Source: an uncultured Clostridia bacterium
GTDB lineage: Bacteria; Bacillota; Clostridia; Peptostreptococcales; Anaerovoracaceae
Reading direction: 5' to 3'
NCBI GenBank assembly: GCA_934247125.1
Contig: CAKQIZ010000013.1
Coordinates: 1-29,553 of the forward strand
DNA length: 29,553 nt
Made by a program: the position numbers and the translations under genes. Below, in pieces: positions 13,764 through 17,075 of this stretch (positions within the stretch are counted from its first letter, which is position 1; each line of letters begins with the position of its first letter). The notes under the pieces are model-generated. The model did not search any database. It worked only from the letters and a program-made list of their open reading frames with translations, and was not told the origin of the DNA.

Positions 13764-14915
13764 TTGGAAAGAGCAGATAATAAGGCAAAAGGGAAAAAGA
13801 GAACGAAACTGAAGCTGAAAAGCGGCGATTTCTGGCTGATGCTGTTCACGCTGATGCTGGTGCTCTTTGGGCTGATAATGGTTTTCAGTGCGAGCTATTA
13901 TTCATCTATAAGCCAGGACGGCAATCCGTACGGCTATTTTGTAAGACACGGTGCGTGGGTCATTGCCGGGCTTGCTGTAATGGCTTTTGGAGCATTACTG
14001 GATTACCGGAAATATAAAAAGTGGGCAATACCTATACTCATAGTAAGCGTAATACTGCTGGTGCTGGTGCTGACCCCGATCGGACAGACGACAAACGGTG
14101 CTACAAGGTGGATAAAGATCGGACCGGTAACGATCATGCCGGGTGAGATCGCAAAGATCGCAGCGATAATATTCGTGGCATGGTTCCTCAGTGAAGATGC
14201 TGGCCGGATAAAATCGCTGACGAGAGGCATACTTCCGCTTCTCGGTATCATTGCGCTTTACGGTGCGCTTATAGTAAAGCAGCCGAATCTATCCACTGCG
14301 ATAACGGTGTGCGGCATAATAATCGCCATGATGCTGGTTGCGGGACTGAAATGGAGATATGTTGCTACGGCTGGAGGGATAGGCGCAGCCGGGATACTCA
14401 GCATAGCATTATTTATGAAGGACACGTACTGGTACAACAGGCTTACGAGCTTCACTGATCCGTTCCAGGATGCGCTGGGTGACGGATATCAGGCTGTGCA
14501 GTCTCTGCTCGCGCTCGGATCAGGCGGCCTGTTCGGCGTCGGACTGGGAAAGAGCGTTCAGAAAAACCTTTATCTGCCTGAACCGCAGAATGACTTCATA
14601 CTTGCGATAATAGGAGAAGAGCTGGGATATATAGGCGTACTGCTTTTGATAGCACTTTACTGCCTGTTTATATGGAGAGGCATCCATATCGCGCTCAATG
14701 CGCCGGATCAGTTCGGACTTCTTCTGGCTTCGGGCATCGTCCTTATGGTGGCCATACAGGTGATACTGAATATCGCAGTCGTTACATCATCGATGCCGCC
14801 GACAGGCATAAATCTGCCGTTCATAAGTTACGGAGGAAATGCATTGCTGATTTTTATGTTTTCGGCAGGAGTGCTGCTTAATATATCGCGGCACGGACTG
14901 AAAGTACAGGAGTGA
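13764..14915 (+). CDS. ftsW: Peptidoglycan polymerase FtsW (SEDS family)
   Basis: A 383-residue SEDS protein with about ten membrane helices, the glycosyltransferase that polymerises lipid II at the septum with the class B PBP encoded upstream. Motifs: FSASYYSS in the first helix, GATRWIKIGP, KQPNLSTA, the PEPQNDFILAIIGEELG loop, and TGINLPFISYGG near the C-terminus. The start is TTG 13764: an in-frame TAA lies directly before it (13761-13763), and the next start codon is inside the first helix, so TTG is the only start that keeps the membrane segment. The ribosome binding site is the AAAGGTG at the murD end. The basic N-terminal tail (KAKGKKRTKLKLK) is cytoplasmic. It overlaps the GTG upstream of murG slightly. 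Confidence 0.95.
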   Translation: MERADNKAKGKKRTKLKLKSGDFWLMLFTLMLVLFGLIMVFSASYYSSISQDGNPYGYFVRHGAWVIAGLAVMAFGALLDYRKYKKWAIPILIVSVILLVLVLTPIGQTTNGATRWIKIGPVTIMPGEIAKIAAIIFVAWFLSEDAGRIKSLTRGILPLLGIIALYGALIVKQPNLSTAITVCGIIIAMMLVAGLKWRYVATAGGIGAAGILSIALFMKDTYWYNRLTSFTDPFQDALGDGYQAVQSLLALGSGGLFGVGLGKSVQKNLYLPEPQNDFILAIIGEELGYIGVLLLIALYCLFIWRGIHIALNAPDQFGLLLASGIVLMVAIQVILNIAVVTSSMPPTGINLPFISYGGNALLIFMFSAGVLLNISRHGLKVQE

Positions 14916-14920
14916 ATCAA

Positions 14921-16030
14921 ATGAAAGTTATTATGACCTGCGGAGGCACAGGAGGCCATATATATCCTGCGCTGGCTATCGCAGATGAGATCAGGAAGAG
15001 GAAGCCTGATGCAGAGATAATATTTGTAGGATCCGAGATAGGTCTTGAAAGAGATCTGGTACCTGAGAACGGATATGAGATAGAACTCATTTCCGCAGAT
15101 GGGTTCAACAGAGAGCACCTGCTCAAGAATTTTGAGGTCATCAGAAAGCTGAGAAGGGGCAGCAAGCGTTCTCGAGAGATACTGCGAGAATTCAGGCCTG
15201 ATGTCGTGATAGGCACGGGAGGCTATGCCAGCGCGCCGATCATGAAGGCTGCTCAGAAAATGCATATCCCGACATTCATACATGAGCAGAATGCTGTGCC
15301 GGGGATGGCGAACAAGATGCTGGAAAAACACGTCAATAAACTTTTTCTCGGATTCGAGGAGGCGTCAAAATATTTCAGATATCCTGAAAAACATGTCGTG
15401 GCCGGCAATCCGGTAAGACATGTCTTCATGACTGCGGACAGGGAAAAGTCAAGGGCGGAGCTCGGCTTTGACAAGTCTGATTTCGTACTGCTCGCGTTCG
15501 GAGGAAGCCAGGGTGCGGGACGTGTAAACAAGGCGATGATCGGAATAATAGAGGCTTTCAATGGTCTTGAGGGATTCCGCATATGCCTTGCGACCGGCAG
15601 CTACTACTACGATGCGATAAAAGAGGAACTTAAAGAGAAAGGTATGCAGGTGGCGGACAATGTGGATATCATGGAGTACATACATGATATGGCTAAATAC
15701 CTGTCAGCAGCAGATCTGGTAATAAGCCGCAGCGGAGCGCTCAGCGTTGCAGAGGTCACTGTCTGCGGTGTGCCGGCAGTGTTCATCCCATCGCCGCTCG
15801 TAACCGGAAATCATCAGTATTTCAATGCAAAAGCCGTAGCGGACAAAGGCGGAGCTTTGATAATAGAAGAAAAAGATCTCAACAATGAGGAACTGATCAG
15901 TGAAATACTGAAACTTAAAAACGATCCGGTGATGCTGAAGCAGATGGCAGAAAAAAGCTATTCGTGCGCACCTCTCGATGCCACGGGAATAATCTGTGAC
16001 AATATCATGGAAGCGATAGAGCAGAAGTAA
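14921..16030 (+). CDS. murG: UDP-GlcNAc:lipid I N-acetylglucosaminyltransferase MurG
   Basis: A 369-residue GT-B glycosyltransferase that adds GlcNAc to lipid I at the inner membrane face, giving lipid II. The N-terminal loop CGGTGGHIYPALA (7-19), GTGGYASAP, HEQNAVPGMANK, the C-terminal domain GGSQGAGRVN, ISRSGALSVAE and the PLVTGNHQYFNAK segment are all conserved. A GTG at 14912 would add three residues, but AGGAG (14908-14912) overlaps it; ATG 14921, eight bases from that site, is the better start. The gene begins six bases after the ftsW stop. A hairpin with a T tract follows, so the upstream dcw transcript probably ends, at least in part, here. Confidence 0.97.
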   Translation: MKVIMTCGGTGGHIYPALAIADEIRKRKPDAEIIFVGSEIGLERDLVPENGYEIELISADGFNREHLLKNFEVIRKLRRGSKRSREILREFRPDVVIGTGGYASAPIMKAAQKMHIPTFIHEQNAVPGMANKMLEKHVNKLFLGFEEASKYFRYPEKHVVAGNPVRHVFMTADREKSRAELGFDKSDFVLLAFGGSQGAGRVNKAMIGIIEAFNGLEGFRICLATGSYYYDAIKEELKEKGMQVADNVDIMEYIHDMAKYLSAADLVISRSGALSVAEVTVCGVPAVFIPSPLVTGNHQYFNAKAVADKGGALIIEEKDLNNEELISEILKLKNDPVMLKQMAEKSYSCAPLDATGIICDNIMEAIEQK

Positions 16031-16040
16031 TGATAAAGGA

Positions 16041-16080
16041 ACCTCCGACATATCATGGAATATGATCCGGAGGTATTTTT
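16041..16080 (+). terminator. Terminator after murG whose 3' arm is also a ribosome binding site
   Basis: ACCTCCG (16041-16047) and CGGAGGT (16068-16074) form a perfect 7-bp stem, extended inside by CATAT (16049-16053) with ATATG (16060-16064), and are followed by a T run (16076-16081). It starts ten bases after the murG stop. GGAGG (16069-16073) is also spaced six bases from TTG 16080, the likely start of the murA relic, so folding would both stop transcription and hide that site. Confidence 0.65.
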
Positions 16081-16319
16081 TGGGAGCGTATATTGAAATA
16101 TCACAAAAAGAAGTTATAATTAAAAGTAATGATATATTGTGCAGGGCATCTGTTGCAGATGTAGAACTCAGGGGTGGTGCAGCTCTCGTTATCGCAGGTC
16201 TTATGGCTCAGCGAGGCACCGTGGTCAGGAACACAAAATATATCAAACGGGGATGCAGCAGGTTTGCGGATAATATAAGACGTTTAGGTGGAGACATCAG
16301 AGAGAATGAGAAAAGATAA
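16080..16319 (+). pseudogene. murA: Truncated murA: C-terminal relic only
   Basis: The roughly 80-residue frame matches the last 65-70 residues of UDP-GlcNAc enolpyruvyl transferase MurA, which has about 420 residues: VELRGGAALVIAGLMA corresponds to the family's DLRAGAALVxAGLxA, and YIKRGCSRFADNIRRLGGDI to the HIDRGYExxxxKLxxLGAxI end. The two arginines of these motifs (R371 and R397 in E. coli numbering) are kept, but the substrate-binding lysine and the active-site cysteine loop lie in the missing N-terminal 80%. It cannot make enolpyruvyl-UDP-GlcNAc, so a full murA must exist elsewhere. GGAGG (16069-16073) suggests TTG 16080 as start; ATG 16062 lies upstream of that site. murA is the normal neighbour between murG and ftsQ in Clostridia. 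The frame has stayed open and overlaps the ftsQ start by 14 bases. Confidence 0.85.
16093..16120 (+). promoter_or_regulatory. Strong sigma-A-type promoter inside the murA relic
   Basis: TTGAAA (16093-16098), 16 bases, perfect TATAAT (16115-16120). It lies just downstream of the murG terminator and upstream of ftsQ, so it can drive ftsQ and ftsZ independently of the upstream cluster. Confidence 0.7.
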
Positions 16320-17058
16320 CCGTACAGAAAAAACTGTTAAAAAGAAAAAACGGCGAAAGAAACATTATCTCCTCAGGCTGATTATAATAGCAGCCGTATG
16401 TGTCGGACTTTATTTTACGGCACATATAGAGTATTTCAATGTGGACAACGTTGTTGTGACGGGAAACAGGGAGATATCCGATGAGGAGATAATAAAGCTC
16501 TCAGGGATAAAGACGGGAGACAATCTGTTTGATGTGCATCCGCTGATAGCTCAGCATAAGATAAAGAAAAACCTTTATATAGAAGACGTCGATGTAGACA
16601 GGAAGCTGCCCGACAGGGTGGAAATCAATGTCAGTGAACGAAGCGGCAAGGCTCAGTTCATAAAGGGCAGGAAGTACTGCGTTACAGACAATGATGGCAA
16701 AGTGCTGGAGATAAGCAAAGAAGAGAAAAAAGTGACGATAGTTGAAAATGTGACAGTGACAGAGGCACAGCTGTCCGAAACTATCAGCGTTAAGGAGACG
16801 GGCGTCTACCGCAAGGCCATGAAGCTCATCCGGACAACTGAAAACAATGATCTTTACTTCAAAAAAATAAAGATCAGCGGCAAGAATGTAGAAGCTTATG
16901 TGTACGATGGACTTGTGTGCAAAGGCAAATATGACAATATCATGACCGCGATAAAGTCAGGCGCGCTGAAGGCAGTCGTATATGATCTGTACCAGAAAGG
17001 CGTCGAAAGCGGCGTTATCAGTGTAGGCAGCAATAATTATTGTTCCTTTACGCAATAA
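16306..17058 (+). CDS. ftsQ: Cell division protein FtsQ/DivIB
   Basis: A 250-residue bitopic membrane protein: a very basic cytoplasmic tail (KTVKKKKRRKKH), one membrane helix (about 21-38), then a POTRA domain starting at FNVDNVVVTGN (about 44-112) with SGIKTGDNLFDV and the DRKLPDRVEINVSER segment, and a beta domain. It links FtsL and FtsB/DivIC to the septal synthases. GTG 16288 is a possible earlier start without a ribosome binding site; ATG 16306 has GGTGGAG 12 bases upstream and is preferred, overlapping the murA relic by 14 bases, which suggests coupled translation. The gene lies between the murA relic and ftsZ; ftsA is not found after it. Its own promoter is probably inside the relic. 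Confidence 0.93.
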   Translation: MRKDNRTEKTVKKKKRRKKHYLLRLIIIAAVCVGLYFTAHIEYFNVDNVVVTGNREISDEEIIKLSGIKTGDNLFDVHPLIAQHKIKKNLYIEDVDVDRKLPDRVEINVSERSGKAQFIKGRKYCVTDNDGKVLEISKEEKKVTIVENVTVTEAQLSETISVKETGVYRKAMKLIRTTENNDLYFKKIKISGKNVEAYVYDGLVCKGKYDNIMTAIKSGALKAVVYDLYQKGVESGVISVGSNNYCSFTQ

Positions 17059-17075
17059 AATTTATATGTTATAAT
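17047..17075 (+). promoter_or_regulatory. ftsZ promoter overlapping the ftsQ end
   Basis: TTTACG (17047-17052), 17 bases, extended -10 TGTTATAAT with TATAAT at 17070-17075. A weaker second candidate is TTCACG (17109-17114) with TAAAAT (17133-17138). Both fall in or near the 100-base ftsQ-ftsZ gap and give ftsZ an independent supply. Confidence 0.65.

What the first reader, a model, noticed from the sequence alone, without database searches (positions are those of the whole stretch)
16080..16319. A murA C-terminal relic is kept in the dcw cluster
Only about 80 codons of murA remain, in its normal place between murG and ftsQ. The frame has no stop, both conserved C-terminal arginines are kept, and the 3' end overlaps ftsQ. 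A neutral relic of this length would normally have picked up stops, so either the loss is recent or the piece is useful: as a coupled leader for ftsQ, as a carrier of the promoter, or as a small protein that might interact with full-length MurA. I do not know of a described role for such a fragment.
Basis: partly seen in the sequence, partly recalled or inferred. Interest (0 to 1): 0.75.

Follow-up and report, generated by a model that had tools for sequence, protein, structure and literature searches.

The report
Dead murA piece carries ftsQ promoter
A leftover end of a lost cell-wall gene sits in front of a cell-division gene and most likely survives because it contains the on-switch (promoter) for that division gene, an on-switch that related bacteria keep hidden inside the intact gene.

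Summary
In detail: window 16080-16319 is an open 79-codon MurA C-terminus between murG and ftsQ. The top-scoring sigma-A-type site in 8-20 kb, TTGAAA-16-TATAAT (16093-16120), lies inside it. In relatives the same site is written into the codons of intact murA: 28 of 54 dcw murA genes examined have an 11/12 site at the same codons and 26 score 8 or less. The 28 form one exclusive group in a MurA tree built without those columns. In the window's nearest held relatives (G321, G322) the frame is dead and shortened, yet both hexamers are intact (12/12), while the stretch behind keeps 65/164 and 31/164 consensus bases. The 32 genus loci that lost murA entirely have no 11/12 site there.

The relic is unlikely to work as a protein: it breaks 3 of 13 columns invariant in 54 intact MurAs, and an open frame is weak evidence. 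The lost copy was probably redundant: 48 of 49 genus genomes have a murA over the curated cut-off, and 8 of those carry a second one in dcw. Transcription was not measured.

The parts
14912..16030 (+). murG, upstream neighbour
   Evidence: ORF; related genomes match at up to 68% identity
16036..16081 (+). terminator-like hairpin with U-tract after murG; its 3' arm holds GGAGG (16069-16073), 6 nt before TTG 16080
   Evidence: fold -16.4 kcal/mol, z -3.0 for 16034-16083; -14.3, z -2.6 for 16036-16081; z only -0.8 for the longer stretch 16028-16140. The consensus scan did not list it
16080..16319 (+). murA C-terminal relic, open frame, 79 codons plus stop
16093..16098 (+). -35 hexamer TTGAAA inside the relic
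   Evidence: same codons in 28 dcw murA genes; kept in dead-frame G321 and G322
16115..16120 (+). -10 hexamer TATAAT, spacer 16; predicted transcription start near 16127
   Evidence: start site inferred
16306..17058 (+). ftsQ (ATG 16306), the gene the promoter points at
   Evidence: similar FtsQ start in G321 and G322

Best explanation
The fragment is what is left of a second, redundant murA paralog that stood between murG and ftsQ. The 3' coding part of that gene contained a sigma-A-type promoter (TTGAAA-16-TATAAT) reading into ftsQ. When the enzyme was lost, selection kept the stretch from the promoter to the ftsQ start. The protein frame is a young, no longer constrained leftover. In the window a terminator-like hairpin after murG would make ftsQ depend on this promoter. 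Shown: the sequence, its conservation in intact murA of relatives, and its survival in dead frames. Inferred: promoter activity, start site, terminator function, dependence of ftsQ on it, and the presence of another murA in this genome (which is not held).
For: (1) Best promoter match of 8-20 kb on both strands, 11/12; 23 sites of 9 or more were found against 15.6 in shuffles, and this is the only one at 11. (2) 28 of 54 dcw murA genes carry an 11/12 site at exactly the same codons; the other 26 score 8 or less. (3) The 28 are one exclusive split in a MurA tree built without those columns (28 in, 0 others, support 80), at median 48% and minimum 42% MurA identity. (4) Codons fixed: ATT 28/28, GAA 27/27 of Glu, ATA 28/28, GCT 20/20 of Ala, GTT 8/8 of Val; the mean top-codon fraction over 124 conserved columns is 0.53 and 6 columns reach 1.0, 3 of them here; usage elsewhere in these genes ATT 0.29, GAA 0.64, ATA 0.44, GCT 0.19, GTT 0.29. 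(5) It is the only 11/12 site on the coding strand of those 28 loci (91 kb); the 26 loci without it (58 kb) have none. (6) Dead-frame G321 and G322 keep 12/12 hexamer bases and 23/28 of the core, against 65/164 and 31/164 downstream. (7) All 7 intact and both dead genus loci scanned have the 11/12 site before ftsQ; 0 of 32 loci without murA do. (8) In the family the same 30-base pattern elsewhere (4 of 23 hits) stands before tRNA-Pro genes (2) or before an ATG with a Shine-Dalgarno-like sequence (2).
Against: No transcript data. The 28 were recognised by the pattern, so hexamer invariance is partly built in; the bimodal scores and the tree test mitigate this. Two of the 28 loci (L125, L130) came in through the pattern search; without them the count is 26 of 52. 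32 of 42 genus loci have lost murA and have no 11/12 site in the 400 bp before ftsQ (7 of the 32 have a 10/12 site), so ftsQ can manage without it. Unique changes at codon positions 1+2 versus 3 do not separate the window relic from intact genes (8:6 against 35:17, p 0.54). At the laxer level of columns at least 93% conserved the relic breaks 5 of 23, and one intact gene also breaks 5. G321 and G322 are sister species and probably one event. Outside the family the pattern is at about the control rate (9 hits against 6 of the reversed pattern).
Confidence: 0.82

Rival explanations
1. The fragment is a translated small protein, for example a regulator or partner of full-length MurA, started at TTG 16080 behind GGAGG.
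For: Open frame; GGAGG 6 nt before TTG 16080; a 79-aa protein 95% identical and three 59-60-aa proteins at 68-82% are recorded elsewhere, and P0003 has no substitution at the invariant columns it covers.
Against: Breaks 3 of 13 columns invariant in 54 intact MurAs, 2 of 13 already in P0002; frame dead in G321 and G322; the Shine-Dalgarno lies in the 3' arm of the hairpin; a transcript from the internal promoter would start beyond TTG 16080 (inferred).
Confidence: 0.06
2. Plain recent decay: the piece has no use and has not yet been lost.
For: Frame still open; changes at invariant residues; an open frame after tens of substitutions is not rare; complete loss is common in the genus (32 of 42 loci).
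Against: The two hexamers are kept 12/12 in the window and in two relatives whose frames are gone. Plain decay does not predict this.
Confidence: 0.1
3. The 3' end is kept as a translational coupler or ribosome-binding site for ftsQ, and the promoter match is incidental.
For: The relic stop overlaps ftsQ by 14 bases; intact relatives also run into ftsQ.
Against: In G321 and G322 the murA frame no longer runs into ftsQ and much of the 3' part is gone, while the hexamers stay; the codon-level fixation sits at the promoter, about 200 bp from the ftsQ start.
Confidence: 0.05

Closest known systems
E. coli ftsQ promoters (ftsQ1p/ftsQ2p) nested in the upstream dcw gene ddlB
   Same: A promoter for ftsQ lying inside the preceding cell-wall gene of the dcw cluster. 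The position inside ddlB is recalled; passages of PMC4462998 mention the ftsQ p1 gearbox promoter and its reference list has a title placing ftsQ1p in the ddlB-ftsA region.
   Different: Different host gene (murA), different lineage, housekeeping-type hexamers rather than a gearbox sigma-S promoter, and here it outlived its host gene.
MurAA/MurAB (MurA/MurZ) paralog pair of Firmicutes
   Same: Most Firmicutes encode two such enzymes (PMC12077105, abstract and passages). In this genus the dcw copy is the second, lower-scoring one.
   Different: Only the C-terminal 79 codons remain; no enzyme. Which of the two named paralogs it corresponds to was not tested.
murA as a dcw-cluster gene in Firmicutes
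   Same: murA inside the dcw cluster in some Firmicutes (PMC8871954, passages).
   Different: The main text of that paper has no occurrence of 'promoter' or 'pseudogene'.

Membership tests
MurA enzyme | full-length protein of about 419 residues | tested here: not met
   only profile positions 342-417 of 419 present
MurA enzyme | residues invariant among intact relatives | tested here: not met
   3 of 13 invariant columns changed: G to R, D to E, Y to C
sigma-A-type promoter | -35 and -10 hexamers near consensus with 16-18 spacing | tested here: met
   TTGAAA-16-TATAAT, 11/12
sigma-A-type promoter | conserved beyond coding need | tested here: met
   kept in two dead frames; fixed codons in 28 intact genes
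sigma-A-type promoter | transcript start and activity | not testable with these tools
   no expression data
nested dcw promoter for ftsQ | lies in the coding part of the gene before ftsQ and points at ftsQ | tested here: met
   213 bp before ftsQ in 7 of 7 intact genus loci scanned
nested dcw promoter for ftsQ | drives ftsQ | not testable with these tools
   inferred from orientation and from the upstream hairpin
small protein or leader peptide | frame conserved in close relatives | tested here: not met
   murA frame lost in G321 and G322
intrinsic terminator (upstream hairpin) | GC-rich stem followed by U-tract | tested here: inconclusive
   stem with bulges followed by AUUUUUU, z -3.0 and -2.6; not listed by the consensus scan

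The most novel reading that the evidence does not exclude
In one group of Clostridia a DNA on-switch for cell division has been the senior partner in an overlapping gene: it dictates both codons and amino acids of MurA at two spots over deep divergence (down to 42% identity) and is kept as a free-standing promoter after the enzyme dies, so that how murA can be lost is governed by what happens to ftsQ transcription. A palindrome near the predicted start (ACAATATATTGT in some genus members) could add regulation.
Probability: 0.35. Interest if true: 0.65.

Novelty: new variant of a known kind. Interest (0 to 1): 0.5.

Why it matters
Promoters inside upstream genes are known, but here the age of one, its codon cost and its fate when the host gene dies can be read from one alignment. 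It offers a natural experiment (intact, dead-but-kept and fully lost states in one genus) on how a division gene keeps its expression while its neighbour disappears. It also warns that short conserved gene relics may be regulatory rather than coding.

Tried and rejected
Small-protein reading: tested by invariant columns, relatives' frames and codon-position counts; not supported. The codon-position count gave no difference (p 0.54) and is reported as a negative. Known RNA element: no Rfam match at gathering threshold in the window. Operator palindrome ACAATATATTGT: no copy with up to 1 mismatch in the window; left as a lead. Order-wide pattern search (297 genomes, 21 with a match): 12 of the 21 were already known; of the 9 outside the family, 8 were held as loci and read and are not murA, and 1 (G476) was not held. 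The reversed control had 8 hits in 7 of those 297 genomes, 6 of the hits outside the family, so the pattern means little outside it. Early gap sizes were wrong for reversed loci and were redone. In one search three rows of the promoter group were shifted by a stop upstream of the start; corrected. One search repeated (same genus). The second fold used the stored orientation of L041 and was not used. One search was run to recheck the murA-less count: G304 had been counted as lacking murA but is cut off before murG, so 33 of 43 became 32 of 42. Six of the 49 genus genomes were not examined for the interval (G244, G290, G300, G306, G311, G316). DNA behind P0002-P0005 could not be fetched, so their context is unknown. 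Literature: searches returned 0 papers; some searches gave listings, from which passages of three papers were read (PMC4462998, PMC12077105, PMC8871954); the other listed papers were not opened.

Full report
What is there. Window 16080-16319 is an open frame that matches only the C-terminal end of MurA (profile positions 342-417 of 419, E 4e-15; Pfam EPSP_synthase 22.3 bits against a cut-off of 22.8). murG ends at 16030 and ftsQ starts at ATG 16306, so the relic's stop overlaps ftsQ by 14 bases. Between murG and the relic lies a hairpin (16041-16074) followed by AUUUUUU (z -3.0, z -2.6). The consensus scanner did not list it, so it is only terminator-like. Inside the relic lies TTGAAA-16-TATAAT (16093-16120), the top-scoring promoter-like site of 8-20 kb on both strands (11/12) and one of two 11/12 sites in the whole window.

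The intact gene. The window's genus has 49 held genomes. The murG-ftsQ interval was read in 42 of them: 8 have a full murA there, 2 have dead remains, and 32 have nothing recognisable (one further locus, G304, is cut off, and six genomes were not examined). All 49 genomes match the MurA profile. 48 have a copy over the curated cut-off: in 47 it scores 551 bits or more, and in one (G071) it is cut short at 497.5 bits. The 8 dcw copies score 465-484 bits and stand beside another copy of 563 bits or more in the same genome. The lost gene was therefore redundant in its relatives. The window's own genome is not held, so a remaining full-length murA there is inferred.

The promoter is written into the intact gene. 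Of 136 family loci examined, 54 have the murA C-terminus in place. In 28 of these TTGAAA (once TTGATA)-16-TATAAT stands at the same codon offset; the other 26 score at most 8 of 12. Two of the 28 (L125, L130) were brought in by the pattern search; without them the count is 26 of 52. A MurA tree built without the promoter columns puts the 28 on one side of a split with none of the 26 (support 80), so among these loci the trait follows descent, with no loss while murA is intact. MurA identity within this group is 42-93%, median 48%. At the promoter the codons are fixed (ATT 28/28, ATA 28/28, GAA in all 27 with Glu, GCT in all 20 with Ala, GTT in all 8 with Val), whereas the mean top-codon fraction over 124 conserved columns is 0.53 and 6 columns reach 1.0, 3 of them here. 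Because the set was recognised by the pattern, this invariance is partly circular; the lack of intermediate scores and the tree are the independent supports. On the coding strand of the 28 loci (91 kb) there is no other 11/12 site; in the 26 others (58 kb) there is none.

What happens when the gene dies. G321 and G322 are the nearest held relatives; with the window they form a group with support 100. Both have lost the frame, share a one-base gap just after TATAAT in the alignment, and are shortened so that the -35 site lies 177 and 113 bp before ftsQ instead of 213. Yet both hexamers are complete (12/12) and the core is 23/28, as in the least similar intact genes, while the stretch behind, up to ftsQ, keeps 65/164 and 31/164 consensus bases. 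The window keeps 12/12, 25/28 and 117/164. Where murA is gone altogether (32 loci) there is no 11/12 site in the 400 bp before ftsQ; 7 of the 32 have a 10/12 site, 205-400 bp before ftsQ.

The motif as a promoter. The 30-base pattern occurs 23 times in 22 of 349 family genomes; the reversed control occurs twice, in one genome. 19 hits are in dcw murA (in one of these, G274, the contig ends before ftsQ). The other 4 stand before tRNA-Pro genes (2, one genome) or before an ATG with a Shine-Dalgarno-like sequence (2). That is what a housekeeping promoter would do. Outside the family the pattern is near its control rate (9 hits against 6).

Is the frame useful? The window relic differs at 3 of 13 columns invariant in 54 intact MurAs (G to R, D to E, Y to C); leave-one-out gives 0 for 52 and 1 for 2 intact genes. 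With columns at least 93% conserved it breaks 5 of 23; 42 intact genes break 0, and one breaks 5. P0002, a 79-aa relative, already has two of the three changes; P0003 has none in the part it covers (all). Counts of unique changes by codon position do not differ from intact genes (p 0.54), so the relaxation is visible only at invariant residues. Random substitution leaves the frame open in 45% of runs after 20 changes and 25% after 40. The most economical history is that the frame was lost independently, and later, in the window lineage than in the G321/G322 lineage; this is inference.

Relation to what is known. Promoters for ftsQ inside the preceding gene are known in E. coli (ddlB; position recalled; PMC4462998 passages). 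Two MurA paralogs are usual in Firmicutes (PMC12077105, abstract and passages), and murA in the dcw cluster is described for Firmicutes (PMC8871954, passages). Three searches for such a promoter or for one kept in a dead gene returned 0 papers; the library covers open-licence papers only.

Verdict. The relic is real. Its most likely reason for being there is a promoter for ftsQ that was nested in murA and outlived it. Activity is untested.

Noticed in passing
17047-17075: TTTACG-17-TATAAT with TG before the -10 (10/12) stands at the end of ftsQ, before ftsZ; ftsZ may have its own promoter.
   Followed up: no
L046, L048, L051 and L045 (genus loci), just after the -10 box: Perfect 12-base palindrome ACAATATATTGT near the predicted transcription start, kept with one change in the dead-frame relic of G321; a possible operator, or a by-product of the coding sequence.
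   Followed up: partly
16069-16079: GGAGG six bases before TTG 16080 lies inside the 3' arm of the hairpin, so a ribosome site and a terminator-like stem overlap.
   Followed up: partly
L079 (G299) and the L105-L108 group: Further losses of dcw murA in the genus, without an 11/12 site before ftsQ, placed apart from the main murA-less group in the tree (support at L079 is only 56).
   Followed up: partly
L127 1541-1934 (G234): Two inverted copies of a tRNA-Pro/tRNA-Ala pair, each preceded by the same promoter pattern.
   Followed up: no
L050, L053, L054, L062, L064, L069 (genus loci): Where murA is absent, an open frame rich in Glu, Gln and Pro runs from near the murG stop into ftsQ, as if ftsQ were extended at its N-terminus.
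   Followed up: no
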